From Quercus robur (lineage: Eukaryota; Streptophyta; Magnoliopsida; Fagales; Fagaceae): 64,000 bases of DNA. Position 1 is the first letter of the stretch; the number at the start of each line of letters is the position of its first letter. The position numbers were made by a program, and so were the translations under genes. The stretch spans positions 30,271,210-30,335,209 of the forward strand of contig NC_065544.1 in the NCBI RefSeq assembly GCF_932294415.1, written 5' to 3'. The notes below the pieces were generated by a model that was given only the letters and a program-made list of their open reading frames with translations, did no database searches and had not been told where the DNA came from. Below are positions 8,611 to 59,384 of this stretch, piece after piece.

Positions 8611-9296
8611 TGTGGGGCCCGGCCCAAAAATGATGGGCTATTCCAAGCTCAGGCCCGTCCGAGGAGCGTCCTGTCCAAAGAAAAGCCTCATATGAAGCGC
8701 TATTCAACCCCAATAGCGCCAAGGAAACCTGTCCGAGGAGTAACTACTCCTCGGACATCACGAAGCCCAGACGAGGAACTTGCCCCAGCCATTTCAGCTC
8801 GTCTTCCCAACATATAAAACGAATTAAATTCAAAATATCTCGCGGAAGGCTACCACCACATTAATTGCGCCCCAACCACCCTCTTGGCCGCATTAATGAG
8901 GAAAAGACTCCTGAACAGTACCGCCTTGGCCTCTGCAACTCACAAAGGGTCTGATGAGGGCGTCTGATGGGACAGGTGCTCAAGTGGATGCTTGGATGAT
9001 TAACAGGTGTAAGGCTAAGATGAAAAGAAGAAGAATATATAATGTAGTGGAGTCCCTCAAAGAAGGGGACGGTAGAACGGTATCAGGAACAAAAAAGAAA
9101 TAAAATCAGACTTGAGAAAGATCCATTCTGGTGTTTTCTATTTTCTTTTTGCAAACCATACTGTCCATGCATTAGACCGAACAAGTTCACTGAGGCCAAG
9201 TTCTTTGACCCATCCTCTACAAATAATTATTGTGGGTTGCGCTTTGGGCCAGGGCCTAATCAATATAAGTTGGGCCAGGAAAATCGTGTAACCACA
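8611..9296 (+). repeat. 5' LTR of Tat copy 1
   Basis: Starts TGTGGGGCCCGGCC and ends GTAACCACA. It contains a palindrome at 8,730-8,757 with 13-bp arms TGTCCGAGGAGTA around two bases, and an ATATATAAT candidate TATA box near 9,033. It differs from the 3' LTR at seven sites, all transitions. Confidence 0.95.
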
Positions 9297-9298
9297 AT

Positions 9299-9316
9299 TG
9301 GCGCCGTCTGTGGGGA
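9299..9316 (+). other. Primer binding site (tRNA-Asp-like)
   Basis: TGGCGCCGTCTGTGGGGA lies two bases after the 5' LTR. The first nine bases and the last five match the reverse complement of the 3' end of plant tRNA-Asp as I recall it; the four between do not match. Confidence 0.75.
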
Positions 9317-9349
9317 GAGCTAAGGCATCAGCTAGTGCAACGGTCAAGC

Positions 9350-11389
9350 ATGGAAGAACTAGATCCACACCAGGAAGATCCTCACCAAGCTACCTCCCAA
9401 CGGACACGACCCGCCGAGTCCCAGAGGCAAAATAACCCAACCAACCCAGGCGGCAGGGGGAATCGTGAGGGAAGTGTGCGTACTATCCAGACGAGCCAGA
9501 GTCACACTCAGACAGGAAGTCACGTGTCTCAGAGGCGAAATAGTCACCAGGCCATGCAGCGAGAGATAGATGACTTAAAAAGGAAGTTACTACGTGTACA
9601 ACGAAGACGATCTCCCTCTGACTCAGGCGAGTCTTCTAATGCGGAGGACATGAGTTACAGACGAAGGTCAAGGACCCCCCCAAGCGAGACCTTTTCTTAC
9701 GTAAAGGAACCACGCCTAGTACGGAAGTATGAGAGCCCATCCAGCAAAGGTTCGGGGAGCGACGCCATGAAGAAGGCGTTGGATCAAGTCTCAAGGTCAC
9801 CCTTCACGAGTAAAATCGAAGGGGCTAAGCTGCCAAGACGCTTCAACCAACCGGTATTCGCCATCTATACCGGCAGAACAGATCCGGTAGAGCACGTGAG
9901 TCAGTTCAACCAGAAAATAGCGATCTATTCGCAAAACGAAGCCCTAATGTGCAAGATCTTCCCATCCAGCTTGGGATCGATGGCAATGAGGTGGTTCAAC
10001 AGCCTGAGGACAAACTCCGTAGGCTCCTACAAGCAGCTCACTCAAGCTTTTTGCTCCCGTTTTATTACAAACACCAGAGTCCCTCGACCTCTCAGTTCGC
10101 TACTGTCCTTGTCCATGCATGAAGGAGAAACTCTGAAAGCATACTCGGATAGGTATTGGGAGGTGTATAACGATTTAGACGACAACCATGATAATGTTGC
10201 TATCAGCACGTTCAAAAGCGGCCTCCCTACCTGGCATGGCTTGAGGAAATCCCTCACCGGAAAACCAGTTACTGACGTCCAACAGCTAATGGATAGGATC
10301 GACAAGTACAAAAGGGTAGAGGAGGATCAGCTGCAAGGGAAGGGGAAGGAGAAGGTTGTCCCCCTTAAAGCAAATGATTTCAGGACGGAACGTCACAATC
10401 CTGGTCAGCCGAGGAGAGATTTTCCGCGACAGGCTGGGCAGAGCAACCCGCAAACAGTGAATGCCGTATTCAGAGAGCCGGTACAACAAGTACTGGAGAA
10501 AGTAAGGGATGAACCCTATTTCAGATGGCCGGGAAAGATGGCTGGAAACCCTGCCAATCGTAATCAGAACTTGTATTGCCAATATCATCAGGACCACGGG
10601 CATACTACTGAGGACTGCAGGAATTTGTGGAATCACCTGGATCAATTGGTCCGAGAAGGAAAGCTACGTCACCTGCTGCACCCATCGAGCGGCCATCCCG
10701 GCCAAGCGACACAAGAACCTCGAAGGGACGTGTCTTTAAGACCCCCCATCGGGACGATACATGTCATCCTCGCTGCACCAGGAAGAACTGGGCCACCCAT
10801 CCCCAGGGTATAAGCCGTGAACCACCTTCCCTCCGAGGGCAGGCAAAGGGAGCCCAAAAGGATAAAAAAGGGAAACTCTTTGATACTGGGATTCTCGGAT
10901 GAGGATAAGAAAGGAACAATTCAACCTCACGATGACGCCTTGGTGGTCACCTTGCGGATTGGGGGTTTCGATGTGAAAAGGGTATTAGTAGACTCTAGAA
11001 GTGCGGTGGAGATAATGTACCCCGACCTATACAAGGGGCTGAATTTGAAGCCGGAAGATTTGACAACTTATGACTCCCCCCTCCTCAGCTTCGAGGGGAA
11101 GCTCGTTACACCAAAGGGGCAAATCCGACTGCCCGTACAGACTGGGGCGGAAGTGGTGGAGGTGAATTTCATCGTGGTCGACGCTTATTCACCCTACACC
11201 GCGATAGTTGCAAGGCCATGGATCCACAGCCTAGAGGCCGTGACCTCCACACTTCACCAGAAAGTGAAATACTCATCCAGAGGACGAGTGGAAGAGATCC
11301 GAGGAGATCAGGCCGTGGCCAGGAAGTGTGTGGTGGCCGCCATTTTACATCGGCCCTTGGTCGAGACCTCGGCCCCAAAGAGCTTATAG
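9350..11389 (+). pseudogene. gag-protease of Tat copy 1, one premature stop
   Basis: The ATG at 9,350 aligns with the start of the same gene in copy 2, and the frame is 680 codons in both copies. The N-terminal third is charged and disordered. The middle carries a retrotransposon gag domain (around EHVSQFNQKIAIYSQNEALM and MAMRWFNSL), which forms the particle. A CX2CX3HX4C-like knuckle follows in YCQYHQDHGHTTEDC. An aspartic protease domain comes after it. The protease motif reads DSRS here but DSGS in copy 2, so the active-site glycine is mutated. A TAA at 10,811-10,813 replaces the TTA of copy 2 and cuts gag from protease. The final TAG at 11,387 is shared by both copies and appears to be functional rather than decay. 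Confidence 0.9.
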
Positions 11390-11395
11390 CAACCA
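11387..11395 (+). promoter_or_regulatory. Candidate stop-codon readthrough site UAG CAA CCA between protease and pol
   Basis: The gag-pro frame ends in TAG, and the next six bases CAACCA fit the CARYYA context known from tobamovirus-type leaky stops. The same frame stays open for the following 39 codons and leads into reverse transcriptase with no ATG near its beginning (the codon at 11,507 is TTG). Copy 2 has the same arrangement with CAGCCA. None of the private nonsense codons in either copy has a CARYYA context. Function is inferred. Confidence 0.7.
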
Positions 11396-14300
11396 GCCTC
11401 CTCGGCAAAGCAAGACGAGGGGCTGGCCGAGGAGATAAGGTGTGAAGGTTTAGATAAGGTTGCTGTCAGCAACGACCCGGAGAAGTTCTTTCAGGTCGGC
11501 TCTGAATTGCCCTCTCAGGAAAAGGAGGAACTGGTCAGATTTCTCAGAGAAAATGTCGATGTATTCGCTTGGGACGCCTACGATGCCCCTGGAGTTGATC
11601 CCAGCCTCATCTGCCACCACCTGAACGTCAACCCCTCTTCCACTCCGAGGAAGCAACCACCCCGGTGCCCTTCAAAAGAACACGTTAGTGCCGTAAGAGA
11701 CGAGGTGGTCAAGTTGAAAAGAGCAGGGGCTATCAAAGAGGTCTTTTATCCTGAATGGTTGGCGAACACAGTGGTGGTAAGGAAGAAGACGGGGAAGTGG
11801 AGGGTCTGCGTGGACTTCACGGACCTGAACAAGGCGTGCCCCAAGGACCCATTCCCTCTACCCAAAATCGATCGGTTGGTGGATGCAACCGTGGGACACC
11901 CTCGAATGAGCTTCCTGGACGCCTTCCAGGGCTATCATCAGATACCCCTTGCGCTAGAGGACCAAGAGAAAACGGCTTTCATGACGCCCATCGGAAATTA
12001 CCATTATAAGGTGATGCCATTCGGGCTAAAGAACGCGAGCTCAACCTACCAAAGGATGATGACTCGGATGTTCGAGCCACAACTGGGCAAGATCATTGAG
12101 GTGTATATAGACGATATGGTTGTGAAAGTAAAAGGGTGTCCGAGCACGTGCAGGACCTTGGAACAGTCTTCGCTATCTTAAGGGAGCACCGGTTGCGGCT
12201 GAATGCCTCCAAATGTTCATTCGGGGTCGGGTCTGGGAAATTCCTAGGGTACATGGTCACCCATAGAGGAATAGAAGTAAGTCCTGACCAAATCAAAGCC
12301 ATTAACAGTCTACAAACTCCTCGGAACCCGAAGGAGGTGCAGAAGCTCACTGGCATGATTGCGGCATTAAGCCGGTTCATATCACGATCGGCAGATCGAT
12401 GTCGGTCTTTTTACCTCCTGATAAACAAGTGGAAAGAGTTTAAGTGGTTGGAGGATTGCGTTCAGGCTTTCCAACAGCTTAAAGACTACCTATCACGACC
12501 AACCATCATGTCCAGTCCGGAGGCAGACGAGGTGCTGTTTGCCTACATCGCCGTAGCTCCCCACGCCGTAAGCCTGGTACTGATACGGGATGATAATGGG
12601 GTGCAGCGACCGGTGTACTATGTGAGCAAGTCACTACATGAGGCTGAGGTGCGATACCTACCCTTAGAGAAGGCAATTTTGGCGATAGTGCATGCAACCC
12701 GGAAGCTTCCTCATTACTTTCAGGCGCACACGGTCATCGTCCTGACTCAGCTTCCACTTCGAGCCGTGCTTCGAAGCGCTGACTACACAGGAAGGATCGC
12801 AATGTGGAGTGCTCTTCTGGGGGTTTTTGATATTAAATATATGCCCAGACCCTCCGTCAAAGGACAGGTCCTCGCGGACTTGGTAGCAGAGTTTGCCGAG
12901 CCCTCTATAGAAACGATGACCGAGAAGAAAGACCTGGGCGGAAAACTGGTTGGCACAGTTTCAGCCGGGGAGACCATGCATTGGAAGGTCTACGTGGATG
13001 GCGCGGCCAACCAGAGAGGATCAGGAGTTGGGATAGTATTAATATCGCCGGACGGCGCTGTCGTTGAAAAATCATTAAGACTCGGTTTCTCGGCTACGAA
13101 CAATGAAGCCGAATACGAAGCCTTACTTCAAGGAATGGCAATGGTTCAAAAATTGGGTGGAAGAGTAATAGAAGCCTTCTCGGACTCCAGATTAGTGGTC
13201 GGACAAGTGATGGGAGAGCTAGAAGCTCGAGATACTAGGATGCAAGAGTATCTGGGACAAGTCAAACGGCTACAGGCGAGCTTTGAATCCTTCAGTTTGA
13301 CGCACGTCTCCAGGAGCATAAACACTCATGCAGACTCGCTGGCCACTCTTGCCACGTCCTCGGCACGTAATTTGCCACGAACGATCCTAGTCGAAGATCT
13401 AGTCAAGGCCAGTCCCATCAGCAGAAACCCGACCCAGGTCCATCAGATTAGACAGAGTCCTAGTTGGATGGACCCCATAAGGAATTTCCTCCAAGACGAT
13501 ATCTTACCGGAAGAAAAACTAGAAGCCGAGAAGATACGTAGAAATGCTCCTCGTTTTTGGCTATCAGAGGATCGCAAACTTTATCGACGCTCCTACTCTG
13601 GACCTTACTTACTCTGCGTACATCCAGAAGAGTCCGAGTCTCTTCTTGAGGAGTTGCATGAGGGAGTATGTGGAAGTCACACCGGAGGAAGATCGCTGGC
13701 GCACAGGGCACTTACCCAAGGATACTGGTGGCCGAACATGCAGAGACAGGCCCAGGAATACGCTAAGAAGTGCGATCAGTGTCAAAGATTCGCCCCAAAT
13801 ATCCACCAACCCGGAGGGGTTCTCAACCCACTCTCCAGTCCATGGCCTTTCGCGCAATAGGGTCTTGATATTGTCGGGCCTTTCCCCAAGGCTGCGGGGA
13901 ACAAGCGATACATAATAGTCGGAACCGATTACTTCACTAAATGGGTGGAGGCTGAACCTTTGGCCAACATCAGGGACGTGGACGCCCAGAAATTCATCTG
14001 GAAGAACATTATCACCCGCTTCGGAACTCCGAGAACCCTCATTTCCGACAATGGTCTTCAGTTTGACAGCAAGAATTTTAGGGAGTATTGCCGTGAGTTT
14101 GGGATCATTAATCGATATTCCACCCCCGCATACCCCCAAGGAAATGGGCAAGTCGAGGCCGTGAACAAGGTCATAGTGAACGGGTTGAAGAAAAGATTGG
14201 ATGAGTCAAAGGGGAGATGGGTAGAAGAACTACCGCACGTCTTATGGACCTATCGGACAACGCCGCGGCGTTCAACCGGTGAAACTCCCTTCTCAATGAC

Positions 14301-14703
14301 TTACGGGGCTGAGGCTGTGCTTCCGATCGAGAACAATTTCCCCACGTTGAGGTCTAGCTCGTTTACCCCAAGCGATAACGATGAGTTGCTAGGAAGAAGT
14401 CTGGACCTAACCGAGGAAAGAAGGGAAAAGGCCACGATTCACATGGCCTATTATCACCAGAAGCTAAGACAATGGTATGATGCTAACGTCAGATTGCGGC
14501 CTTTGGGTCCAGGTGATCTCGTGATGAGGAAGATTCTCGGCAGCGCATAGAACCCCTCTTGGGGCAAGTTGGGGCCCAATTGGGAGGGACCATACCGTGT
14601 CACATCCGTGGCCGGAATAGGCGCCTATTACCTAGAAGATTTGGATGAAAAAGCTGTACCTCGACCATGGAATGTAAATAACCTCAGGAGGTATTATTAT
14701 TAA
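11390..14703 (+). pseudogene. pol of Tat copy 1 (RT, two RNase H domains, integrase), frameshifted and interrupted
   Basis: The order is reverse transcriptase (KDPFPLPKIDRLVD, MPFGLKNA, catalytic YIDDM near 12,105), native RNase H/connection (VYYVSKSLHEAEVRYLPLEK), a second archaeal-type RNase H (YVDGAAN, NNEAEYEALLQGM, SDSRLVVGQ, HADSLA), integrase zinc finger (H...H...CDQC) and DDE core (first D just after 13,860, ISDNGLQF, then E in GNGQVEAVNK). Lesions compared with copy 2: a 1-nt deletion near 12,127-12,140 just after YIDDM, TGG to TAG at 13,858-13,860, and a TAG at 14,548-14,550 where copy 2 has AAG. The length is 3,314 nt against 3,315 in copy 2, which agrees with one lost base. The gene enters from gag-pro by the UAG described separately. 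Confidence 0.92.
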
Positions 14704-14764
14704 TAAGAATGGCTTAGCATACGTTTTCTTTTATGACTATTTGCCGCTTGCCAGTCTACATTAC

Positions 14765-15175
14765 AATTATTTATAAGTTTTAAACAAAACCTAAGTCCTG
14801 CATGGCTCCTCAGACCACAGACTTGGGGGAAATTAATACTTAAGCCGATTGTTTATAAGTTTTAAACAAAACCCAAGTCCTGCATGGCTCCTCGGACCAC
14901 AGACTTGGGGGAAATTATTATTTAAGCCAACTATTTATAAGTTTTAAACAAAACCAAAGTCCTGCATGGCTCCTCGGACCACAGACTTTTGGGGAAGCTA
15001 TTACCCATGACAGCTCATAGTTTTAAACAGAACCTAAGTCCTGCATGGCTCCTCGGACCACAGACTTTGGGGAAATTATTACTCATGACACTTCATAGTT
15101 TTAAGCAGAACCTAAGTCCTGCCTGGCTCCTCGGACCACAGACTTTTGGGGAGATTATTACTTGTGATAGATTGG
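14765..15175 (+). repeat. Tandem array, five units of 78-82 bp, between pol and the antisense gene
   Basis: Each unit contains AGTTTTAAAC, AAGTCCTGCATGGCTCCTCG and CCACAGACTT. Starts fall near 14,771, 14,853, 14,935, 15,014 and 15,092. It lies exactly between the 3' ends of the convergent pol and antisense genes. The same place in copy 2 holds an enlarged array of related units. Confidence 0.9.
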
Positions 15176-15513
15176 GAGATTATTGCTTAAAGGAAATCAC
15201 TTTTAATACATGCGCACAGTCTAGCACCATCGCAAATCATCAAACGCGCAGCGCCAAGAACCCATTTCCGTTTTGACTAATAACCTGTGTCTACATTGTT
15301 GCAAATGCTTGAAATAAAAAAGAGCAATACTAGCGCACAGCCGTAGTAAGCAAAACGAACATTTTATATTAATATTCCGAGTACATTAGAAAGAGAGGTC
15401 CGTACAAAAAAGGGAAAAGTAGGATAACTCTCATTTAAAAAATATATATATAAAATAAAATAAAATAAAACAAAAAAATAAAAACTATTTACAGAGATTG
15501 AAAGCCTGAAAGG

Positions 15514-17953
15514 CTAGGCTTGAGCAGGAGGATCTTCTTTCTGCTCGGGCTGAGGAGGAGGAACCTCGATGGTAGAGTCTGCAGCAGGATCCTTCACCAT
15601 ATCAGGCACAAGGACGGCATCAGGCACCGCTAGGTCCTGCTCTGGAGCCACTTGGGCGTCTTCAGGATTCGCACGGATCTCCCTAGGATAGAAGATGCTC
15701 TCGGGCAGTCTTAGTGCCGAATCTGCAGGAACTCCTGCAGCATCAAGAGCATGAGCCCATGAAATGCCGCAGTACTCCCTGCATACCTCGGGAATCTCCT
15801 CAGACAGCCTGGCCTTCGTCTCTTCAGCCCCGAGCTGGCGAGCAGCATTCTTCTCGGCCTCTGTAGCCTCTCGGATCAGTTGGGCCTCCTCCTTTACCCG
15901 CCTCAGCTCATCCTCTACCTTTTGCAGGGCAATCTTGAGATCCTGCGCTGCCTGTCTCTCAGTGACAAGGTTAAGCTGCGTCGTGTACAGCTCTTTGCGC
16001 TGGTCCTCCGCCTGGGTCTCGGCGTTCTTTAAACCAGACTCTGCACTTTTGCGCCGGTTCTCCGACACCTTGAACTCGTCCGTGAGTTGAAGGTGCTCGT
16101 GCTTGAGGGACCCCAAGGCTTTCTCCATTTCCACCCGAGCCTGGGTCTCAGCCTCAACCCGACTACGGCTGTCGCGGCAAAACTCATTAGCCACGAACAC
16201 CTGCTGAGTAATCTGCAAACGAAACAAGGTTGCATTGAAAAAGAAATCTAGCGGGGGTAAATAAATTGATAAAACAGTAAAAGGACTACTTACCAACGCA
16301 AGATCCCTTTTTAGGGATAGAAAGAGCTCAGGCTGAGAGAATCGCCTATAGGCCTCCATGTCCCGAGGAAGGAGTAGGGGCTGCTCTAAGGCATCCGCCA
16401 CGTACCCTGCCCGGCCTCGGTTATACTCTCGGACCGAAGCATTGTAGGAGATGGGAACCCCATCCAGCTCCAACTTGGGGTTCCATGCACGAGGGGAGGC
16501 GCGCACGTCAGTAAGGTTCTCCTCATCTCGGCTCTCCGAGGAGTTACCCCTTCTGCTCCTCGGCGCCCGCGTAGTCTTTTGCTGCTTGGTCGGCTGGGCA
16601 GCCATCTCACCCTCCTCAGGGGTGTCAACCGGCCTCTTCTTCTTCAGGTCCGGATTAACCTTAAAGCCAGGGTCCGAGACGCCCTGAGGGACCACAGGGG
16701 GAAGGGTTTTGACCTTTGATGGACTTGGTCCCTTCGATGGCTGAACCTTTGATGACTGACCTTTCCCCCGAGAGGACATCAGCTCCTTTAGAGACTTTCC
16801 CTTTCCTGCCATGGGCTCTACCTCTTCGTCTGAAGTATCGTCCGAGCAGATAACGATTGAGGGAACACCAACCGCGGAATGTTGGTCCTGCTCTGCTTCG
16901 GGGTTAGAAAGCTCCACCAAGGGGTTTTGCTGAATTTCCTCCTCGAAGTAAAACTTGTCTATTTCTTCCTCAAGGGAAAGACGAGATGATTCAGCTCCTT
17001 CTTCAACCAAAACAGCAGCACCAGGCTCATTTACCGGAGGTAGCTGCTCTGCCAAGTAAGGATTTCTGACACCTGACAACACCACTGGTGGCAAATCGTG
17101 GTCAGCTAGGAATCCGTCCTGGGACATGTTAATTCTAGCCAGCCTCGGACTGCCAGCCCTTATAGCGTGACCGACTGCCTGGAAAGCGCTGCTCAGAGGT
17201 TGATAGCCCAAAACCAGATGGGCCGCACGCAACTGTCCGTCCTCGGTAGTGTAAATCTCCGACCTGAGAAGATAGTTTAGCGTTGACACGTTCACGAGGC
17301 TTAGCCGAGGAGCAACGTGAATTTTGTCTACAAACAAACCAAGAAAAGTGAGGTTAAACCATGAAAATTTTCAATTACAAAGAAAGCAAGAAAAGTAACC
17401 CCTCAACACTAAATCCTTTCCCAAAAAGGACCAATCCTAAAAGCGCCGCACCTGGGTTTCCTGCCCGAGTTGGACAATGAATACCGTCGAACCACTCCCC
17501 AGAAGCAATGAGGAAGTCATTCTTCAAGGTCTTATTGGAAACTGGAAGACAAGAGATCAACCTAACATCCTCGTTCCGGGATTTAAGATAATACCCATCA
17601 TCCCCGAGGCGGTGACATTCGTACAGATAAGCCACATCGTGCCAAGTAAGGCCTAGATTCATCCGCTCGTCTAAGACATCTACACAGCCTAGTATCTTGA
17701 ACATATTCGGGGCACACTGATACGGCGTCAACCTATGGTTGAACAGGTATTCCCTTGTGATCCTACGCATGGGAAGTGTCATCCCTCCCTCTATGAAAGC
17801 AATCATGGGGATAACGACTTCTCCCTCAACTCTATCTGTCAATATTCCTTCAAGAGGACAGTGCCGCAGCCCAACCCCCGGGGGAATGTGGTATTTCGCC
17901 CTAAAGGCTTCCATAGCGGCAGGAGTTTTTACTAATTTTTCGAATCTACCCAT
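15514..17953 (-). CDS. Antisense additional gene of Tat copy 1 (Transposase_28-like plus coiled coil), three coding exons
   Basis: Coding exons 17,953-17,452, 17,327-16,294 and 16,212-15,514 (502, 1,034 and 699 nt) give 744 codons plus stop. Introns are 124 bp (17,451-17,328) and 81 bp (16,293-16,213), both GT-AG; the second is in frame and stop-free. The first ~170 residues resemble the putative gypsy-type transposon domain (Transposase_28) seen in plant Tat elements (recalled, not searched). The middle is acidic and proline/serine-rich with basic clusters. Roughly residues 520-660 are a long heptad-rich coiled coil (around LKHEHLQLTDEFKVSENRRK). The C-terminus is acidic and proline-rich. 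It is transcribed against gag-pol from its own promoter beside the 3' LTR. Its role is unknown. The ATG is chosen because it follows the leader-intron acceptor directly and is the same in copy 2. Confidence 0.8.
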
Positions 17954-18049
17954 CTGAACTGAACTGGGGAAATGAAAGTAAAGACTGAAAAGAAAAGTAG
18001 AGTCCGAGGAGGGAATTGAAACGGGGAGAAAAGCGAAATGTACAGGTAC
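17954..18049 (-). other. Leader (5' UTR) intron of the antisense gene, copy 1
   Basis: A donor AAG|GTACC at 18,049 and an acceptor CAG directly before the ATG at 17,953 bound a 96-bp intron. Copy 2 has the same donor word GTACC, the same acceptor and the same 96-bp length, which supports real splicing. Confidence 0.65.
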
Positions 18050-18231
18050 CTTCACAAAACGCTCAAGGGGACGCCTGGAAATCTCTCTTGGACGAAACGC
18101 TTCACAAAAACGGCTACGGTGGCGTAACGGACGCAAGTGTTCGTATATCTCTGGGATTCGATGGAGCTCTCTGGAGTCTTTTGAGGTTTGTGAAATGCAG
18201 ATGAAAGAAGGAACTGAACCCCTCTGACGTC

Positions 18232-18238
18232 TTATATA
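18232..18238 (-). promoter_or_regulatory. TATA box of the antisense gene, copy 1
   Basis: TATATAA on the minus strand, inside the conserved context GGCTATATAAGACGTCAG. It lies 183 bp upstream of the leader-intron donor and outside the LTR. The same box is at 43,908-43,914 in copy 2. It suggests transcription independent of the LTR promoter. Confidence 0.6.
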
Positions 18239-18484
18239 GCCAGGAGGAGAGAGAAAAGATCATCCCTGCCTAAAAATACAGGAAAAAACGATGGCCATTC
18301 GATCCACGCTAAGCCGTTGGATGAAGGGAACATAACGCCTCCAGAAGTTAATGGCCACGCCTCGTAAATTGTAGCGCGTCAAAAGTAACGGTCCGCACGC
18401 GCGCCCCACGATCTCCTTATTTCCCTCCACTCACAAACATCAAAACCCCGCCTTTCCCCTCGGAGGGAGGTAAAAACCGGAGTT

Positions 18485-18496
18485 TTGAGGGGCTAT
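18485..18496 (+). other. Polypurine tract region of Tat copy 1
   Basis: TTGAGGGGCTAT abuts the 3' LTR. It is purine-rich at GAGGGG and matches the equivalent site of copy 2 (43,651 onward, other strand). Confidence 0.55.
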
Positions 18497-19182
18497 TGTG
18501 GGGCCCGGCCCAAAAATGATGGGCTATTCCAAGCTCAGGCCCGTCCGAGGAGCGTCCTGTCCAAAGAAAAGCCTCATATGAAGCGCTATTCAACCCCAAT
18601 AGCGCCAAGGAAACCTGTCCGAGGAGTAACTACTCCTCGGACATCACGAAGCCCAGACGAGGAACTTGCCCCAGCCATTTCAGCTCATCTTCCCAACATA
18701 TAAAACGAATTAAATTCAAAATATCTCGCGGAAGGCTACCACCACATTAATTGCGCCCCAACCACCCTTTTGGCCGCATTAATGAGGAAAAGACTCCTGA
18801 ACAATACCGCCTTGGCCTCTGCAACTCACAAAGGGTCTGATGAGGGCGTCTGATGGGACAGGTGCTCAAGTGGATGCTTGGATGATTAACAGGTGTAAGG
18901 CTAAGATAAAAAGAAGAAGAATATATAATGTAGTGGAGTCCCTCAAAGAAGGGGACGGTAGAACGGTATCAGGAACAAAAAAGAAATAAAATCAGACTTG
19001 AGAAAGATCCATTTTGGTGTTTTCTATTTTCTTTTTGCAAACCATACTGTCCATGCATTAGACCGAACAAGTTCACTGAGGCCAAGTTCTTTGACCCATC
19101 CTCTACAAATAATTATTGTGGGTTGCGCTTTGGGCCAGGGCCTAATCAACATAAGTTGGGCTAGGAAAATCGTGTAACCACA
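18497..19182 (+). repeat. 3' LTR of Tat copy 1
   Basis: 686 bp, the same length as the 5' LTR, with the same TGTGGGG start and ACCACA end. It repeats the 13-bp-arm palindrome at 18,616-18,643. The target duplication GTTAC follows at 19,183-19,187. Confidence 0.95.
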
Positions 19183-42971: not shown

Positions 42972-43650
42972 TGTAGTTGCACGTTTTTCCTGGCCCAACT
43001 TCAGTTGATCAGGCCTTGGCCCAAAGTGCAACCCACAATAAATATTTGTAGAGGATGGGTCAAAGAACTTAGCCTCAGTGAACCTATTTGGTCTAATGCA
43101 TGGACAGTATTGTTTGCAGAAAGAGATAAAAACGCAAGAATGGATCTTTCTCCTCTGATTTTATTTCTTTTGTTCCTTGTACAGTTTTTTCGTCCCTCCT
43201 TTGAGGGACTCCACTACATTATATAGTTCTCTTCCTCTCATCTAAACCTTACACCTGTTGATCATCTAAGCATCTACTTGAGCACCTGTCCCATCAGACG
43301 CCCTCATCAGTCCCTTTGTGAGTTGCAGAGGCCAAGGCGGTACTGTTCAGGTGTCTTTTCCTCATTAATGCGGTCAAGGGGGTGGTTGTGGCGCAATTAA
43401 TGTGGTGGTAGCTTTCCATGAGATATTTTGGATTTTATTCATTTTATATGTTGGGAGGATGGACTGAAATAGCTGGAGAGAGTTCCTCGTCTGGGATTCG
43501 TGATGTCCGAGGAGGAGTTACTCCTCGGACAGGTTTCCCTAGCGTTATTGGGATTGAGTAGGGCTTCATATGTGGTTTTCCTTCGAACAGGGTGCTCCTC
43601 GGACGGGCCTGAATTTGGAATAGCCCATTATTTTTGGGCCGGGCCCCACA
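42972..43650 (-). repeat. 3' LTR of Tat copy 2
   Basis: 679 bp; on the + strand it starts TGTAGTTGCACG and ends GGGCCCCACA. It carries the TCCGAGGA palindrome at 43,504-43,531. The polypurine-type sequence lies immediately at 43,651. Confidence 0.95.
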
Positions 43651-43907
43651 ATAGCCCCTCAAAACTCCGGTTTTATCTCCTTCCGAGGAGAAAAGCAGGG
43701 TTTTGGAGTTGATGAGAGGATGGAAGTAAGGAGATCGTGTGGCGCGCGTGCGGACGGTTACTTTTGACGCGCTGCAATTTACGAGGCGCGGCCATTAACT
43801 TCTGGAGACATTATGTTCCCTTCATCCAACGGCGTGGCGGGGATCGAACGGCCCTCGTTTTTTCTCGTATTTTTAGGCAGGAGCGATCTTTTCTCTCTCC
43901 TCCTGGC

Positions 43908-43914
43908 TATATAA
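43908..43914 (+). promoter_or_regulatory. TATA box of the antisense gene, copy 2
   Basis: TATATAA in the context CTGGCTATATAAGACGTCAG, as in copy 1. It lies 258 bp inside the LTR boundary and 287 bp before the ATG. Confidence 0.6.
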
Positions 43915-44098
43915 GACGTCAGAGGGGTTCAGTTCCTTATTCTTATCTGTATTTCGTAAACCTCAAAGGACTCCAGAGAACTCCATCGAATCCCAGAGAT
44001 ATACGAACACTTGCGTCCGTTGCGCCACCGTAGCCGTTCTTTGTGAAGCGTTTCGTCCAAGAGAGATTTCCAGGCGTCCCATTGAGCGTTCTATGCAG

Positions 44099-44194
44099 GT
44101 ACCAGTACATTTCGTTCTTTTCCCCGTTTCAATTCCCTAATCGGAATTTACTTTTCTTCTTGGTCTCTACTTTCATTTCCCCATTTCAGTTCAG
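44099..44194 (+). other. Leader intron of the antisense gene, copy 2
   Basis: The donor GCAG|GTACC and the acceptor TTCAG directly before the ATG at 44,195 delimit 96 bp, exactly the length in copy 1. Here an ATG also sits just before the donor and would be in frame after splicing; copy 1 lacks it. Confidence 0.65.
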
Positions 44195-46649
44195 ATGGGT
44201 AGATTCGAAAAATTAGTAAAAACTCCAGCCGCTATGGAAGCCTTTAGGGCTAAATACCACATTCCCCCTGGGGTTGGGCTGCGGTACTGTCCTCTGGAAG
44301 GAGTATTGACAGATAGAGTTGAGGGAGAAGTCGTTATCCCCATGATTGCTTTCATAGAGGGAGGGATGACACTTCCCATGCGTAGGATCACAAGGGAATA
44401 CCTGTTCAACCATAGGTTGACGCCATACCAGTGTGCTCCGAATATGTTCAAGATACTAGGCTGTGTAGATGTCTTAGACGAGCGGATGAATCTAGGCCTT
44501 ACTTGGCACGATGTGGCTTATCTGTACGAATGTCACCGCCTCGGGGATGATGGGTATTATCTTAAATCCCGGAACGAGGACGTTAGATTGATCTCTTGTC
44601 TTCCAGTATCCAATAAGACCGTGAAGAATGACTTCCTCATTGCTTCTGGGGAGTGGTTCGACGGTATTCATTGTCCAACTCGGGCAGGAAACCCAGGTGC
44701 GGCGCTTTTAGGATTGGCGCTTTTAGGATTGGTCCTTTTTGGGAAAGGATTTAGTGTTGAGGGGTTATTTTTCTTGCTTTCTTTGTAATTGGAAAATTTC
44801 ATGGTCTAACCTCACTTTTCTTGGTTTGTTTGCAAACAAAATTCACGTTGCTCCTCGGATAAACTTTGTGAACGTGCCAGCGTTGAACTATCTCCTTAGG
44901 TCGGAGATTTACGTCGCCGAGGACAGACAGTTGCGTGCGGCCCATCTGGTTCTGGGCTATCAACCTCTGAGCAGCGCTTTTCAGGCGGTTGGTCACGCTA
45001 TAAGGGCAGGCAGTCCGAGGCTGGCTAGAATTGACGTGTCCAAGGACGGGTTCCTAGCTGACCACGATCTGCCACCAGTTGTGTTGCCTGGTGTCAGAAA
45101 TCCCTACTTAGCAGAGCGGCTACCCCCAGTAAACGAGCCTGGCGCTGCCGTTTTGGTTGAAGAAGGGGCTGAATCGTCTCGTCTTTCCCTTGAGGAAGAG
45201 ATAGATAAGTTTTACTTCGAGGAGGAAATTCAACAAAACCCCTTGGTGGAGCTTTCTAATCCCGAGGCAGAACAGGACCAACATTCCGCAGTTGGTATTC
45301 CCTTAATCGTTATCTACTCGGACGATACTTCAGACGAAGAGGTAGAGCCCATGGCAGGAAAAGGAAAGTCTCTAAAGGAGCTGATGTCCTCCCGAGGGAA
45401 AGGTCAGTCATCGAAGGGTCAGTCATCGAAGGGACCAATTCCATCACAGGTCAAAACCCTTCCCCCTGTGGTCCCTCAGGGAGTCTCGGACCCTGGTCTT
45501 AAGGTTAATCCGGACCTGAAGAAGAAGAGGCCGGTTGACACTCCTGAGGAAGGTGAGGTGATTGCCCAGCCGACCAAGCAGCAAAAGACCACACGGGCGC
45601 CAAGGAGCAGAAGGGGTAACTCCTCGGAGAGCCGGGATGAGGAGAATGTTGCTGAAGTGCGCGCTTCCCCTCGTGCATGGAACCCCAAGTTGGAACTGGA
45701 TGGGGTTGCCATCCTTTCCAATGCTTCGGCCCGAGAGTATAACCGAGGCCGGGCAGGGTACGTGGCTGATGCCTTAGAGCAACCCCTACTCCTTCCTCGG
45801 GACATGGAGGCCTATAGGCGGTTCTTTCAGCCCGAACTCTTCCTATCCCTAAAAAGGGATCTCGCGCTGGTAAGTAATCCTTTTACTGTTTTATTAATTT
45901 GTTTACCCCTGTTAGATTTCTTTTTCAAAACAATCTTGTTTCGTTCGTAGATTACTCAGCAGGTGTTCGTGGCTGATGAGTTTTGCCGTGATAGCCGTAG
46001 TCGGGTTGAGGCTGAGACCCAGGCTCGGGCGGAGATGGAGAAAGCCTTGGGGTCCCTCAAGCACGAGCACCTTAAACTTACGGACGAGTTCAAGGTGTCG
46101 GAGAACCGGCGCAAAAGTGCAGAGGTTGGTTTAAAGAGTGCCGAGACCCAGGCGGAGGACCAGTGCAAAGAGCTGTACTTGGCACAGATTAACCTCGCCA
46201 CTGAGAGGCGGGCAGTGCAGGATCTCAAGACTGCCCTGCAAAAAGTTGAGGATGAGCTGAGGCAGGCCAAAGAGGAGGCCCAGCTGATCCGAGAGGCTAC
46301 TGAGGCCGAGAAGAATGTTGCTCGCCAGCTCGGGGCTGAAGAGACGGAAGCCAGGCTATCCGAGGAGATCCCCGAGGTGTGCAGGGATTACTGCAGTATT
46401 TCATGGGCTCATGCTCTCGATGCTGCAGGAGTTCCTGTGGATTCGGCACTAAGACTGCCCGAGAGCATCTTCTATCCTCAAGAGATTCGAGCTAATCCTG
46501 ATGAAGCCCAAGTCGCTTCGGAGCAAGACCTGGCGGTGCCTGATGCCGTCCTCGTGCCTGATATGGCGAAGGATCCTGCCACAGACTCTACCATTGAGGT
46601 TCCTCCTCCTCAGCCCGAGCAGAAAGAAGATCCTCCCGCTAAGGCTTAG
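44195..46649 (+). CDS. Antisense additional gene of Tat copy 2 (Transposase_28-like plus coiled coil)
   Basis: Exons equivalent to copy 1 are 44,195-44,696, 44,836-45,869 and 45,951-46,649, with the same lengths (502, 1,034, 699 nt). No stop codon occurs in the 744 codons. Domain order is as in copy 1: Transposase_28-like N-terminus, acidic and basic low-complexity middle, long coiled coil, proline-rich acidic C-terminus. Intron 2 keeps GTAAGT and TCGTAG. Intron 1 keeps its donor, but the acceptor TGTAG of copy 1 reads TGCAA here, so normal splicing of intron 1 is probably lost. Intron 1 also has a 15-bp tandem duplication (GCGCTTTTAGGATTG). Reading direction is opposite to gag-pol. The function is unknown. 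Confidence 0.75.
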
Positions 46650-46976
46650 CCTTTTAGGCTTTTGATCTTTGTAATCTTTTCTCTTTTTTTTTTTTTTTAA
46701 ATGAGAGTCGTCCTATTTTTTCATTCTTTTGTAAGGACCTCTCTTTCTAATGTACTCGGAATATTAATATAAAAGGTTCGTTTTGCTTACTATGGATGTG
46801 CGTCAGTAGTGCTTTAAACATTTGCAACAATGTAGATATAGGTAAATGGTCAAAAATAAAAATGGGTTTTTAGGCTGCGCATTTGAGGGTTGCGAGGGTG
46901 CTAGACTGTGTGCATGCATTAAAATGATTTCCTTCAAGTAATAATCTCCCAATCCATCATAAGTAATAATTTTCCC

Positions 46977-47850
46977 TAAGTCTGTGGTCCGAGGGACCAT
47001 GCAGGGTTTAGGTTCTGTTTAAAACTTATGAATAGTTGCCTTAAGTATTAATTTCCCCTAAGTCTGTGGTCCGAGGAGCCATGCAGGACTTAGGTTCTGT
47101 TTAAAACTTATGAACAGTTGCCTTAAGTATTAATTTCCCCTAAGTCTGTAGTCCGAGGAGCCATGCAGGACTTAGGTTCTGTTTAAAACTTATGGTTGTT
47201 CTCGTGTACTTGGTTTCCCCATAGGCTTGAGTTCGAGGACCATGCAAGGCCTTGGTTCTGTCCAAAACTTGTGGTTCTTCTTTCGCGCATTTGGTTTCCC
47301 CATAGGCTTGAGTCCGAGGACCATGCAAGGCCTTGGTTCTGTCCAAAACTTATGGTTTTTCTTTCGCGCATTTGGTTTCCCCATAGGCTTGAGTCCGAGG
47401 ACCATGCAAGGCCTTGGTTCTGTCCAAAACTTATGGTTTTTCTTTCGCGCATTTGGTTTCCCTATAGGCTTGAGTCCGAGGACCATGCAAGGCCTTGGTT
47501 TTGTCCAAAACTTATGGTTTTTCTTTCGTGCATTTGGTTTCCCCATAGGCTTGAGTCCGAGGACCATGCAAGGCCTTGGTTCTGTCCAAAACTTATGGTT
47601 TTTCTTTCGTGCATTTGGTTTCCCCATAGGCTTGAGTCCGAGAACCATGCAAGGCCTTGGTTCTGTCCAAAACTTATGGTTCTTCTTTCGCGCAATTGGT
47701 TTCCCCATAGGCTTGAGTCCGAGGACCATGCAAGGCCTTGGTTCTGTCCAAAACTTGTGATTAGTTGCCTTAAGTATTAATTTCCCCTAAGTCTGTGGTC
47801 CGAGGAGCCATGCAGGACTTAGGTTCTGTTTAAAACTTATAAATAGTTGT
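46977..47850. repeat. Enlarged tandem array between the convergent genes of Tat copy 2
   Basis: About eleven units. Three A-type units (TAAGTCTGTGGTCCGAGGAG, period about 82) start near 46,977, 47,059 and 47,141. Seven B-type units (CCCATAGGCTTGAGTCCGAG) follow at exactly 81-bp steps from about 47,211, and one A-type unit closes the array near 47,788. B units differ from A units by many substitutions but are almost identical to each other. The 81-bp period equals 27 codons and leaves several long but meaningless open frames on both strands. Confidence 0.9.
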
Positions 47851-47909
47851 CAGTGGAACAGCAAGCAGCGGACAATCATGAAAGAAAAACGTATGCTAAG
47901 CCATTCTCA

Positions 47910-50900
47910 TTAATAACAATATCTTCTGAGATTATTTACATTCCATGGTCGAGGTACAGCTTTTTCATCCAAATCTTCTAGGTAGTAGGCGCCTATTCCG
48001 GCCACGGATGTGACACGGTATGGTCCCTCCCAATTGGGCCCTAACTTGCCCCAAGAGGGGTTCTTTGCGCTGCCAAGAATCTTTCTCATCATGAGATCAC
48101 CTGGACCCAGAGGCCGCAGTTTGACATTAGCATCATACCCCTGTCTCAGCTTCTGGTGATAATAGGCCATATGAATCATCGCTTTTTCCCTTCTTTCTTC
48201 AGCTAGGTCCAGACTCCGTTCCAATAACTCGTCGTTATCGTTTGGGGTAAACAATTTAGACCTTAGCGTGGGAAAGTTATTCTCGATCGGGAGCACGGCC
48301 TCAGCCCCATAAGTCATCGAGAAGGGGGTCTCACCGGTCGATCATCGCGGCGTCGTCCGATAAGTCCATAAGACGTGGGGGAGTTCTTCTACCCATCTCC
48401 CCTTTGGCTCGTCCAGTCTCTTCTTCAGTCCGTTCACTATGACCTTGTTCACGGCCTCGACTTGCCCATTTCCTTGAGGGTAGGCGGGGGTGGAATATCG
48501 GTTAATGATTCCAAACTCGCGGCAATACTCCCTAAAGTTCTTACTGTCGAACTGTAGACCATTGTCGGAAATAAGTGTACGCGGAGTCCCGAAGCGGGTG
48601 ATGATGTTCTTCCAGATGAATTTTTGGGCGTCCACGTCCCTAATGTTGGCCAAGGGTTCAACTTCCACCCATTTAGTGAAGTAATCAGTTCCGACTATTA
48701 TGTATCGCTTGTTCCCCGCAGCTTTGGGGAAAGGTCCGACTATATCAAGGCCCCATTGTGCGAACGGCCATGGGCTAGAGAGGGGGTTGAGAACCCCTCC
48801 GGGTTGGTGGATATTCGGGGCGAATTTTTGGCACTGGTCACACTTCTTAGCGTATTCTTGGGCCTCTCTTTGCATGTTCGGCCACCAGTACCCTTGGGTG
48901 AGTGCCCTGTGCGCCAGCGATCTTCCTCCGGTGTGGCTTCCGCAAATCCCCTCGTGTAACTCCTCAAGTAAAGACTCAGACTCTTCTGGATGTATGCAGA
49001 GTAGGTACGGCCCAGAGTAAGAGCGTCGATATAGTTTGTGGTCTTCTGATAGCCAGAAACGAGGAGCATTCCTACGTATCTTTTCGGCTTCCAGTTTTTC
49101 CTCCGGTAAGATGTCGTTTTGGAGGAAACTCTTTATGGGGTCCATCCAGCTAGGACTTTTTCGGATCTGATGGACTTGAGCCGGGTTTCTGCAGATGGAA
49201 CTTGCCTGCGATAGATCTTCAACAAGGATCATTCGCGGCAGATTATGCGCCGAGGACGTGGCGAGAGTGGCCAGCGAGTCTGCATGGGTGTTTACGCTCC
49301 TGGAAATGTGCGCCAGACTGAAAGATTCAAAACTCCTCTGTAGCCGTTTGACTTGTCCCAGATACTCTTGCATCCTAGTGTCTCCAGCTTTAAGCTCGCC
49401 CATCACTTGTCCCACCACCAATCTGGAGTCCGAGAATGCTTCTATTATTCTTCCACCCAATTTTTGAACCATCGCCATCCCTTGAAGTAAGGCTTCGTAC
49501 TCGGCTTCATTGTTCGTAGCCGAGAATCCGAGTCTTAACGATTTTTCAATGGCAGCACCGTCCGGCGATATTAATACTATCCCAACTCCTGATCCTCTCT
49601 GGTTTGCCGCGCCATCCACGTAGACCTTCCAATGCATGGTCCCCCCTGCTGAAATTGCTCCAACCAATCTTCCACCCAGGTCTTTCTTCTCGGTCATTGT
49701 TTCTATAAAGGGCTCAGCAAACTCCGCTACCAAGTCTGCGAGGACCTGTCCTTTGACAGAGGGTCAGGGCATATATTTAATATCGAAGGCCCCCAAAAGA
49801 GCACTCCACATGGCGATCCTTCCTGTGTAGTTAGCGCTTAGAAGAACGGCTCGAAGGGGAAGCTGAGTCAGAACGATGACCGTATGCGCCTGAAAGTAAT
49901 GAGGAAGCTTACGGGTTGCATGCACTATCGCCAGAATTACCTTTTCTAAAGGTAGGTATCGCACCTCGGCCTCATGTAGTGATTTGCTCACATAGTACAC
50001 CGGTCGCTGCACCCCATTATCATCCCGTATAAGTACCAGGCTTACAGCGTGGGGAGCTACGGCGATGTACGCAAACAGCACCTCATCTGCCTCAGGACTG
50101 AACATGATGGGTGGTCGGGACAGGTAGTCCTTAAGCTGCTGGAAAGCCTGAGCGCAATCCTCCGACCATTCAAACTCTTTCCACTTGTTTATCAGGAGGT
50201 AAAAAGGCCGACACCGATCCGCCGATCGCGATATGAACCGGTTTAATGCCGCAATCATGCCAGTGAGCTTCTGTACCTCCTTCGGGTTCCTAGGAGTCTG
50301 TAGGCTGTTAATGGCTTTGATTTGGTCGGGACTTACTTCTATTCCCCTGTGGGTGACCATATATCCTAGGAATTTCCCAGACCCGACCCCGAATGAGCAT
50401 TTGGAGGCATTCAGCCGCAACCGGTGCTCCCTTAAGATAGCGAAGACTGTTCCGAGGTCTTTCACGTGCTCGGACACCTTTTTACTCTTCACAACCATAT
50501 CGTCTATATAAACCTCAATGATCTTGCCCAGCTGTGGCTCGAACATCCGAGTCATCATCCTTTGGTAGGTTAAGCCCGCGTTCTTTAGCCCGAACGGCAT
50601 CACCTTATAATGATAATTTCCGATGGGCGTCATGAAAGCCGTTTTCTCTTGGTCCTCTAGCGCAAGGGGTATCTGATGATAGCCTTGGAAGGCGTCCAGG
50701 AAACTCATTCGAGGGTGCCCTACGGTTGCATCCACCAATCGATCGATTTTGGGTAGGGGGAATGGGTCCTTGGGGCACGCCTTGTTCAGGTCCGTGAAGT
50801 CCACGCAGAACCTCCACTTCCCCGTCTTCTTCCTTACCACCACTGTGTTCGCCAACCATTCAGGATAAAAGACTTCTTTGATAGCCCCTGCTCTTTTCAA

Positions 50901-51224
50901 TTTTGCCACTTCGTCCCTTACGGCACTAGCGTGTTCCTTTAAAGGGCGTCGGGGTGGCTGCTTCCTCGGAATGGAAGAGGGGTTGACGTTCAGGTGGTGA
51001 CAGATGAGGCTAGGATCAACTCCCGGGGCATCGTAGGCGTCCCATGCGAATACGTCGACATTTTCTCTGAGAAATCTGACCAGTTCCTCCTTTTCTTGAG
51101 AGGGCAATTCAGAGCCGACCTGAAAGAACTTCTCCGGGTCATCTTTGACAGCAATCTTATCTAAACCTTCACACCTTATCTCCTCGGCCAGCCCACCGTC
51201 TTGTCTTGCCGAGGAGGCTGGCTG
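47910..51224 (-). pseudogene. pol of Tat copy 2, two nonsense codons
   Basis: 3,315 nt from just after the UAG to TAA. Domain order is as in copy 1: RT with YIDDMVVKSK, native RNase H, archaeal-type RNase H (YVDGAAN, EYEALLQGM, SDSRLVVGQ, HADSLA), integrase zinc finger and DDE core, then a C-terminal GPYRVTSVAG region. Private lesions: TGA at 49,766-49,764 (copy 1 has AGA) at the end of the native RNase H, and TGA at 48,344-48,342 in the integrase C-terminal half. There is no frameshift. No ATG begins the frame; translation would have to pass the UAG at 51,227-51,225. Confidence 0.92.
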
Positions 51225-51227
51225 CTA
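51219..51227 (-). promoter_or_regulatory. Candidate stop-codon readthrough site UAG CAG CCA, copy 2
   Basis: The gag-pro frame ends in TAG followed by CAGCCA, which fits CARYYA. It differs from copy 1 (CAACCA) only at the purine position allowed by the consensus. The frame is open on both sides, so a single readthrough event joins protease to pol. Confidence 0.7.
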
Positions 51228-53264: not shown

Positions 53265-53297
53265 GCTCGACCGTTGTACTAGCTGATGCCTTAGTTC

Positions 53298-53315
53298 TTC
53301 CCACAGACGGCGCCA
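53298..53315 (-). other. Primer binding site of Tat copy 2
   Basis: TGGCGCCGTCTGTGGGAA on the minus strand, two bases inside the 5' LTR. It is the same tRNA-Asp-like site as in copy 1. Confidence 0.75.
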
Positions 53316-53317
53316 AT

Positions 53318-53996
53318 TGTAGTTGCACGATTTTCCTGGCCCAACTTCAGTTGATCAGGCCTTGGCCCAAAGTGCAACCCACAATAAATATTTGTAGAGG
53401 ATGGGTCAAAGAACTTAGCCTTAGTGAACCTATTTGGTCTAATGCATGGACAGTATTGTTTGCAGAAAGAGATAAAAACGCAAGAATGGATCTTTCTCCT
53501 CTGATTTTATTTCTTTTGTTCCTTGTACAGTTTTTCCGTCCCTCCTTTGAGGGACTCCACTACATTATATAGTTCTCTTCCTCTCATCTCAACCTTACAC
53601 CTGTTGATCATCTAAGCATCTACTTGAGCACCTGTCCCATCAGACGCCCTCATCAGTCCCTTTGTGAATTGCAGAGGCCAAAGCGGTACTGTTCAGGTGT
53701 CTTTTCCTCATTAATGCAGCCAAGGGGGTGGTTGGGGCACAATTAATGTGGTGGTAGCTTTCCATGAGATATCTTGGATTTTATTCATTTTATATGTTGG
53801 GAGGATGGACTGAAATAGCTGGAGAGAGTTCCTCGTCTGGGATTCGTGATGTCCGAGGAGGAGTTACTCCTCGGACAGGTTTCCCTAGCGTTATTGGGAT
53901 TGAGTAGGGCTTCATATGTGGTTTTCCTTCGAACAGGGCGCTCCTCGGACGGGCCTGAATTTGGAATAGCCCATTATTTTTGGGCCGGGCCCCACA
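53318..53996 (-). repeat. 5' LTR of Tat copy 2
   Basis: 679 bp, 12 differences from its partner. It carries the palindrome at 53,850-53,877. The target duplication TATAC follows at 53,997-54,001. Confidence 0.95.
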
Positions 53997-59380: not shown

Positions 59381-59384
59381 AGAG

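What the first reader, a model, noticed from the sequence alone, without database searches (positions are those of the whole stretch)
11387..11395. UAG-CARYYA readthrough signal joins gag-protease to pol in a plant Tat retrotransposon
In both Tat copies the gag-pro frame ends in a UAG, the same frame continues open into reverse transcriptase, and pol has no AUG at its start. The six bases after the UAG are CAACCA here and CAGCCA in copy 2 (51,219-51,227). Both fit CARYYA, the context of tobamovirus-type leaky stops, which random sequence would match about once in 512. The six private nonsense codons in the two copies (10,811, 13,858, 14,548, 52,128, 49,764, 48,342) do not fit it. This suggests programmed readthrough sets the Gag:Pol ratio. 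Plant Ty3/gypsy elements are usually described as using one frame, a frameshift or, in Ogre, an intron at this junction.
Basis: partly seen in the sequence, partly recalled or inferred. Interest (0 to 1): 0.87.

Follow-up and report, generated by a model that had tools for sequence, protein, structure and literature searches.

The report
Leaky stop codon in oak retrotransposons
Many jumping elements in the oak genome seem to make their enzymes by letting a few ribosomes read past one special stop signal, of the kind tobacco mosaic virus uses, which would explain how they make much shell protein and little enzyme.

Summary
In both Tat copies an in-frame UAG ends gag-protease, pol continues in the same frame, and the next six bases fit CARYYA. 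The window's genome matches Quercus robur. Of 170 sampled junctions from it, 167 have UAG, 165 fit CARYYA and 162 have both. All four YY types occur, including UAG-CAAUUA as in tobacco mosaic virus. On a tree of 112 copies the UAG codon changed once, inside a fast-evolving linker. Of 23 other in-frame stops in those windows none fits CARYYA. The first in-frame AUG of pol lies inside reverse transcriptase. Another Tat group in the same genome has a fused gag-pol frame without the motif. Gag-PR proteins named from Q. suber, Q. lobata, Castanea sativa and C. dentata end at the same place. Programmed UAG readthrough is the best explanation. No RNA or translation data were available, so a spliced bypass is not excluded. 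It is not wholly new: RIRE2, a rice element of the same lineage, was cited in 2009 as a readthrough candidate, and SIRE1 is reported to use stop suppression for its env-like gene.

The parts
11387..11389 (+). UAG ending the gag-protease frame, copy 1
11390..11395 (+). CAACCA hexamer (fits CARYYA), copy 1
51225..51227 (-). UAG ending the gag-protease frame, copy 2
51219..51224 (-). CAGCCA hexamer (fits CARYYA), copy 2
9350..11386 (+). gag-protease frame of copy 1 from its first AUG; private TAA at 10811
   Evidence: Pfam Retrotrans_gag; stops and AUG
11390..12181 (+). start of the pol frame of copy 1, RVT_1 from codon 130; private frameshift near 12127
12136..13857 (+). continuation of pol in the shifted frame: RNase H, additional RNase H (RVT_3), integrase zinc-binding domain
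13861..14547 (+). integrase core
11906..11908 (+). first in-frame AUG of pol, inside the RT domain
   Evidence: codon 173 after the UAG
51228..53264 (-). gag-protease frame of copy 2 from its first AUG; private TAG at 52128-52130
49767..51224 (-). start of the pol frame of copy 2 (486 codons: RT and RNase H) up to a private TGA
8611..19182 (+). element 1; LTRs 8611-9296 and 18497-19182 (TG..CA), target duplication GTTAC
   Evidence: LTRs differ at 9 of 692 aligned positions; ends and duplication read
42972..53996 (-). element 2; LTRs 53318-53996 and 42972-43650, target duplication GTATA
   Evidence: LTRs differ at 12 of 679; ends and duplication read
15517..18136 (-). two antisense ORFs between pol and the 3' LTR of element 1 (Retand trait)
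   Evidence: weak, sub-threshold Transposase_28 match in 17378-18136

Best explanation
The UAG at the protease/RT junction is a programmed leaky stop of the tobamovirus type. Most ribosomes end at UAG and release Gag-protease. A minority decode UAG with a near-cognate tRNA, helped by the 3' hexamer CARYYA, and go on in the same frame to make Gag-PR-RT-RH-aRH-INT. This sets an excess of Gag-PR over the RT and integrase part from one mRNA. Shown: the sequence layout, its conservation in the sampled oak copies, and in-frame continuity. Inferred: that readthrough happens, its level, the tRNA used, and the effect on particle make-up.
For: UAG in 167 of 170 and CARYYA in 165 of 170 sampled junctions. 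All 74 scored matches of a PR-RT query contain a TAG; I inspected the junction of each, and 73 of 74 have UAG there (61; 13). Of 23 other in-frame stops near the junction, 0 fit CARYYA. On a tree built from the flanks of 112 copies the UAG codon takes 1 step over 3 sites, against a flank mean of 4.35 steps per site, and the four codons around it are the most conserved of 50 windows. The linker on both sides evolves fast (dN/dS about 0.64 and 0.80) while the pol N-terminus is constrained (0.19). The second hexamer codon encodes Pro, Ser or Leu in different families yet is YYA in 168 of 170 (from the counts; families). In 5 of 38 held loci the frame has no stop over 1,059-1,132 codons except the UAG. 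The first in-frame AUG of pol is inside RT. Gag-PR proteins named from other Quercus species and Castanea end at the same place. The TMV context gives 6-10% readthrough in stable Arabidopsis lines and 32% in transient assays (PMC2754532, passages).
Against: No translation or RNA data. The 170 junctions come from one genome and are high-scoring copies among 11,621-15,175 or 17,022 first-look candidates per protein search; many are close relatives (102 of 170 in one group at 50% flank identity). One sampled copy has UUG at the junction with a 1,776-aa open frame, and 11 metagenome proteins cross the site with Gln (9), Leu (1) or Trp (1), so a sense codon is tolerated at least in some copies. A GT 60 nt upstream is conserved in 94% and an AG 58 nt downstream in 89% of 18 representatives, so a 120-nt in-frame intron cannot be ruled out from sequence.
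Confidence: 0.84

Rival explanations
1. Ogre-like intron: a partly spliced intron removes the UAG, so spliced mRNA gives Gag-Pol and unspliced mRNA gives Gag-PR.
For: Ogre, another Tat lineage, does this at the same junction (PMC6317226, section 13). Conserved GT at -60 and AG at +58 among 18 representatives, 120 nt apart and in frame. Several NCBI gene models of oak and chestnut skip the junction, though such models may be forced by the stop.
Against: The frame is continuous across the UAG and the length changes next to it in the 112-copy alignment are whole codons; Ogre has on average a 274-bp inter-ORF region. An intron does not explain UAG in 167 of 170, never UGA, nor CARYYA in 165 of 170. 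The GT lies in the codon of a residue that is Val in 110 of 112 copies, so protein constraint explains it.
Confidence: 0.08
2. The UAG is a true stop: pol is translated by reinitiation or internal initiation.
For: In one family an AUG follows in frame right after the hexamer (for example UAG-CAA-UUA-AUG in L072 and L117).
Against: In both window copies the first in-frame AUG is codon 173 of pol, inside RT, and four and five out-of-frame AUGs lie in the first 420 nt. Reinitiation needs neither UAG nor CARYYA.
Confidence: 0.04
3. The sampled copies are dead or non-autonomous; pol comes from a master with a sense codon.
For: 33 of 38 held loci have at least one further in-frame stop; one sampled copy has UUG at the junction and an open frame of 1,776 aa.
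Against: Otherwise open copies carry the UAG: 5 of 5; seven matches with a single TAG and a reported open frame of 1,764-1,814 aa; seven fetched copies of a family with a reported 1,831-aa frame all have UAG-CAACCA. Three non-UAG junctions in 170 is about what neutral decay gives for copies with 1.3-1.8% LTR divergence (my arithmetic).
Confidence: 0.03
4. Chance or shared descent: a nonsense codon fixed by drift in one burst.
For: Large closely related burst.
Against: The motif persists across families whose flanking proteins are less than 60% or 50% identical, with all four YY variants and different upstream codons (TTA, CCA, CTA, TCG, TCA, GCA).
Confidence: 0.01

Closest known systems
Tobamovirus replicase readthrough signal (UAG-CARYYA, type I)
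   Same: UAG followed by CARYYA, with an in-frame extension that adds a polymerase; 25 flanking nucleotides suffice in TMV (PMC2754532) and no consistent fold was found here. 16 of 20 copies of the family L175-L194 share the 14-nt string TAGCAATTACAGAT with the TMV reporter primer printed in PMC2754532, which may be chance beyond the hexamer.
   Different: Here in a Ty3/gypsy retrotransposon, between protease and RT; CCA, TCA and CTA as well as TTA; readthrough not measured.
RIRE2 and other two-ORF Retand elements
   Same: Same Retand lineage by REXdb; RIRE2 cited for readthrough candidates among rice gypsy elements (PMC2754532); 41% of Retand clusters have gag and pol in more than one ORF (59% in one, PMC11963269).
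   Different: I could not read the RIRE2 paper, so its stop, context and position are unknown to me. The main text of PMC11963269 has neither readthrough nor recoding.
SIRE1 stop codon suppression
   Same: Plant LTR element with a leaky stop (cited in PMC2194720 and PMC2829016).
   Different: Ty1/copia element; the stop separates pol from the env-like ORF, not gag-PR from pol.
Ogre gag-pro/pol intron
   Same: Tat clade; same junction between PROT and RT.
   Different: Spliced intron in an inter-ORF region of on average 274 bp; here one UAG in an otherwise continuous frame.
Moloney MLV gag-pol readthrough
   Same: UAG between gag and pol in one frame (PMC2194720).
   Different: MLV uses a purine-rich spacer and a pseudoknot and its protease is made by suppression of the stop; here protease is upstream of the stop and the hexamer is CARYYA.

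Membership tests
Tobamovirus-type (UAG-CARYYA) readthrough signal | UAG stop with 3' CARYYA | tested here: met
   162 of 170 junctions have both
Tobamovirus-type (UAG-CARYYA) readthrough signal | long in-frame coding extension under selection | tested here: met
   RVT_1 and RNase H after the stop; pol N-terminus dN/dS 0.19 among 18 representatives
Tobamovirus-type (UAG-CARYYA) readthrough signal | measured readthrough above background | not testable with these tools
   no translation data
Tat/Retand lineage | additional RNase H between RH and INT | tested here: met
   RVT_3 between RT_RNaseH and Integrase_H2C2 in copy 1
Tat/Retand lineage | antisense ORF between pol and 3' LTR | tested here: met
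   15514-17337 and 17375-18136 (-); copy 2 equivalents 44195-46649 (+)
Tat/Retand lineage | TRP28 (Transposase_28) domain in the antisense ORF | tested here: inconclusive
   both copies match at E 0.06-0.07, below the cut-off
Tat/Retand lineage | RT phylogeny with reference Retand elements | not tested
   no reference set was at hand
Ogre intron elements | two ORFs separated by a non-coding region | tested here: not met
   single UAG in a continuous frame
Ogre intron elements | spliced transcripts | not testable with these tools
   no RNA reads
MLV-type readthrough | downstream pseudoknot | tested here: inconclusive
   no consistent fold in 110 nt of 14 copies, z from -3.4 to +1.4; pseudoknots not modelled

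The most novel reading that the evidence does not exclude
UAG-CARYYA readthrough is an old, clade-wide expression mode of a large group of angiosperm Tat/Retand elements, kept since before oak and chestnut parted, while another Tat group in the same genome uses a fused frame and Ogre an intron. The oak genome would then hold thousands of natural UAG-CARYYA readthrough loci (first-look candidates number 11,621-17,022 per protein search, not confirmed), and plant RNA viruses and retrotransposons would have settled on the same signal.
Probability: 0.5. Interest if true: 0.75.

Novelty: new variant of a known kind. Interest (0 to 1): 0.66.

Why it matters
How plant LTR elements make more Gag than Pol is an open question. 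A December 2025 review names frameshifting and separate transcripts as the two main strategies, not readthrough (PMC12786077, passages). Here the same junction is handled in two ways inside one genome: a fused frame in one Tat group and UAG-CARYYA in the other groups sampled. The signal is short, so it can be tested with a standard dual reporter. It also bears on annotation: several oak and chestnut gene models appear to skip this codon.

Tried and rejected
Chance and decay were rejected by the sample from the genome. The TTA codon before UAG looked like part of the signal in the first families (109 of 112) but is not: CCA, CTA, TCG, TCA and GCA occur in others. A shared downstream RNA structure was looked for and not found. 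A first conservation figure rested on a regex that favoured the motif; I redid it with a protein-anchored alignment and use only that. The scan of viral contigs gave no relative. The protein ends show where proteins end, not how often: the length limits of the three protein searches (at most about 850, 1,040 and 987 aa) left out full-length gag-pol, and only the best 120 hits of each were listed. Of 97 aligned proteins among the 291 held, 57 end within -1 to +2 codons of the UAG site, 15 end 11-21 codons earlier and 25 run on. Eleven metagenome proteins cross the site, with Gln in 9, Leu in 1 and Trp in 1; they may be mutated copies or have been translated with another code, and I could not tell. 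A count by pattern over the whole genome was tried and not answered.

Prior-art searches (listings seen, passages of nine papers read) showed no paper describing UAG-CARYYA at the gag/pol junction of a plant Ty3/gypsy element. The most relevant originals were not held: Gao 2003, Harrell 2002, Ohtsubo 1999 on RIRE2, Havecker 2003 on SIRE1. Novelty is therefore provisional.

Full report
WHAT IS THERE. The window holds two Ty3/gypsy elements with both LTRs, in opposite orientation. Element 1 spans 8611-19182 (+), with LTRs of about 690 bp that differ at 9 of 692 aligned positions and a 5-bp target duplication. Element 2 spans 42972-53996 (-), with LTRs differing at 12 of 679. Pfam shows gag, RT, RNase H, an additional RNase H (RVT_3) between RNase H and integrase, and integrase in copy 1. 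That domain order marks the Ogre/Retand part of the Tat clade (PMC6317226, section 13 read). Antisense ORFs between pol and the 3' LTR, a weak Transposase_28 match in both copies and an 81-nt tandem array in element 2 point to Retand (PMC11963269, passages). No RT phylogeny with reference elements was made.

THE JUNCTION. In copy 1 the gag-protease frame ends in UAG at 11387-11389, followed by CAACCA. In copy 2 it ends at 51227-51225, followed by CAGCCA. The frame stays open on the other side. The first in-frame AUG of pol is codon 173, within RT (RVT_1 starts at codon 130); four and five out-of-frame AUGs lie in the first 420 nt. Copy 1 also has a private frameshift near 12127.

THE GENOME. 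The window's assembly has 785.7 Mb in 42 contigs. At least seven of its contigs (C2, C4, C5, C6, C37, C38, C39) have exactly the lengths listed for contigs of Quercus robur proteins (lengths; proteins), so I take the host to be Q. robur. The tool holds no relatives for it, so the nucleotide evidence comes from this genome alone.

HOW THE COPIES WERE CHOSEN. Junctions came from six searches: DNA similarity to each window copy and protein searches with P0050, P0123, P0228 and P0159. The protein searches scored 74 of 13,933, 45 of 17,022, 66 of 11,621 and 63 of 15,175 first-look candidates. All 74 scored copies of the P0050 search were inspected. From the others I fetched part, chosen by hand for spread: 22 of 40 hits, 30 of 40, 17 of 45, 20 of 66, 20 of 63. 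One of these (L165) I fetched because its frame was reported open through the junction. Eight loci that repeat the window copies or one another were dropped (L001, L029, L009-L014), leaving 170 distinct junctions, the two window copies included.

RESULT. 167 of 170 have UAG; the others are UAU (L106), UUG (L165) and UAA (L169). 165 of 170 fit CARYYA: CAACCA 88, CAATTA 48, CAGCCA 12, CAATCA 12, CAACTA 5. The five misfits are TAGCCA, AAACCA, TAATTG, CAACCT and TAACTA. 162 of 170 have both. The misses are about what neutral decay would give for copies of this LTR divergence (my arithmetic). For 112 of the 170 the site was found as the alignment column with most stops, without using the hexamer; 23 other in-frame stops occur in those windows and none fits CARYYA. 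For the other 58 I read translated stretches; in 22 of these (L146, L171, L175-L194) I found the place by searching for the motif or its core and then checked by translation that it lies at the same place in the protein, so these are less independent.

CONSERVATION. On a tree built from flanking codons only, the UAG codon needs 1 change over its three sites; flank sites need 4.35 on average. The four codons around the UAG are the most conserved of 50 windows, although their R and Y positions vary. The hexamer took 19 steps: 14 at the R and Y positions and 5 at the fixed ones. Among 18 representatives the linker evolves fast on both sides (dN/dS about 0.64 and 0.80) and the pol N-terminus slowly (0.19); at the protease end pN is 0.19 and pS 0.75, too saturated for a ratio. 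So a fixed nucleotide island sits in the least constrained stretch. The second hexamer codon encodes Pro, Ser or Leu, yet is YYA in 168 of 170. Clustering all 170 by flank identity gives 10 groups at 50%, 16 at 60% and 21 at 70%; some single-member groups come from frameshifted copies (L038, L146, L153, L170), and 102 of 170 fall in one group at 50%.

OTHERWISE OPEN COPIES. In 5 of 38 held loci of 3.2-3.4 kb the frame has no stop over 1,059-1,132 codons other than the UAG. One search lists seven matches with a single TAG and a reported open frame of 1,764-1,814 aa; I infer that the tool reads through stops inside the match, because for copy 2 its 787 equals 300 + 1 + 486. Seven fetched copies of a family with a reported 1,831-aa frame all have UAG-CAACCA. 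The UAG is thus a standing part of the element rather than a lesion.

CONTRAST. A second Tat group in the same genome (query P0131) shows no stop in 45 of 48 scored copies, with single frames of up to 1,844 aa. In 15 of 15 fetched junction stretches there is neither stop nor in-frame CARYYA. Of three members fetched further downstream, the two scanned carry the additional RNase H and integrase. So fused-frame and UAG elements coexist.

OTHER SPECIES. Only proteins could be reached. Of 97 whose protease end aligns (291 proteins held), 57 end within -1 to +2 codons of the UAG site, among them proteins named Q. suber, Q. lobata, Castanea sativa and C. dentata; 15 end earlier and 25 run on. The length limits of the searches left out full-length gag-pol, so this says where such proteins end, not how common the stop is. 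Eleven metagenome proteins cross the site with Gln (9), Leu (1) or Trp (1). Several NCBI models from oak and chestnut skip the junction, probably by predicted introns (inference).

MECHANISM. The best reading is programmed readthrough of the tobamovirus type. For TMV in plants, CAR YYA after UAG is described as essential, 25 flanking nucleotides suffice, tyrosine is inserted, and efficiency is 6-10% in stable lines (PMC2754532, passages). The protease lies before the stop, so Gag-PR would be the major product and RT-RH-aRH-INT the minor one. This differs from MLV and matches the position of the Ogre intron. No consistent fold was found in 110 nt downstream (14 copies).

RIVALS. A spliced intron is the main one. 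A GT at -60 and an AG at +58 are conserved, the GT in a constrained Val codon, and splicing does not predict the UAG or the hexamer. Reinitiation is unlikely from the AUG positions; one family has an AUG right after the hexamer and could add it. A sense-codon master is unlikely, since otherwise open copies carry UAG; one copy with UUG and an open frame exists.

NOVELTY. Leaky stops in retroelements are known or proposed: MLV, Tca2, SIRE1 (PMC2194720 and PMC2829016, passages). A 2009 paper cites RIRE2 for readthrough candidates among rice gypsy elements (PMC2754532, passage), and RIRE2 belongs to Retand. The main texts of REXdb and of the 2025 Retand survey do not use the word readthrough. I therefore call this a new variant of a known kind: a tobamovirus hexamer fixed at the protease/RT junction of many oak Tat families. 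The originals most likely to anticipate it could not be read.

Noticed in passing
window 47121-47849: Tandem array with 81-nt period in element 2, between pol and 3' LTR; no such array was listed for element 1 at this setting.
   Followed up: no
window 58385-60442: Four copies of a 264-nt repeat, 60-80% identical to the reference copy, of unknown nature.
   Followed up: no
window 20437-22058: Inverted repeat with 178-nt arms 80% complementary, 1,266 nt apart.
   Followed up: no
window 15517-18136 (-) and 44195-46646 (+): Large antisense ORFs in both elements; only sub-threshold matches (Transposase_28 among them).
   Followed up: partly
L072, L117, L156, L159-L162, L164: In this family an in-frame ATG comes right after, or in L156, L160 and L164 as the codon after, the hexamer (for example UAG-CAA-UUA-AUG), which could allow reinitiation as well.
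   Followed up: no
proteins P0050, P0122, P0124-P0126, P0129, P0132, P0145, P0166: Metagenome-derived relatives carry Gln exactly at the UAG site; either CAG copies or translation with UAG read as Gln.
   Followed up: no
proteins P0151, P0154, P0155, P0156: Named oak gene models skip the junction, probably by introns predicted to avoid the UAG.
   Followed up: no
L175-L194: 16 of 20 copies of this family share 14 nt (TAGCAATTACAGAT) with the TMV reporter primer printed in PMC2754532; beyond the hexamer this may be chance.
   Followed up: no
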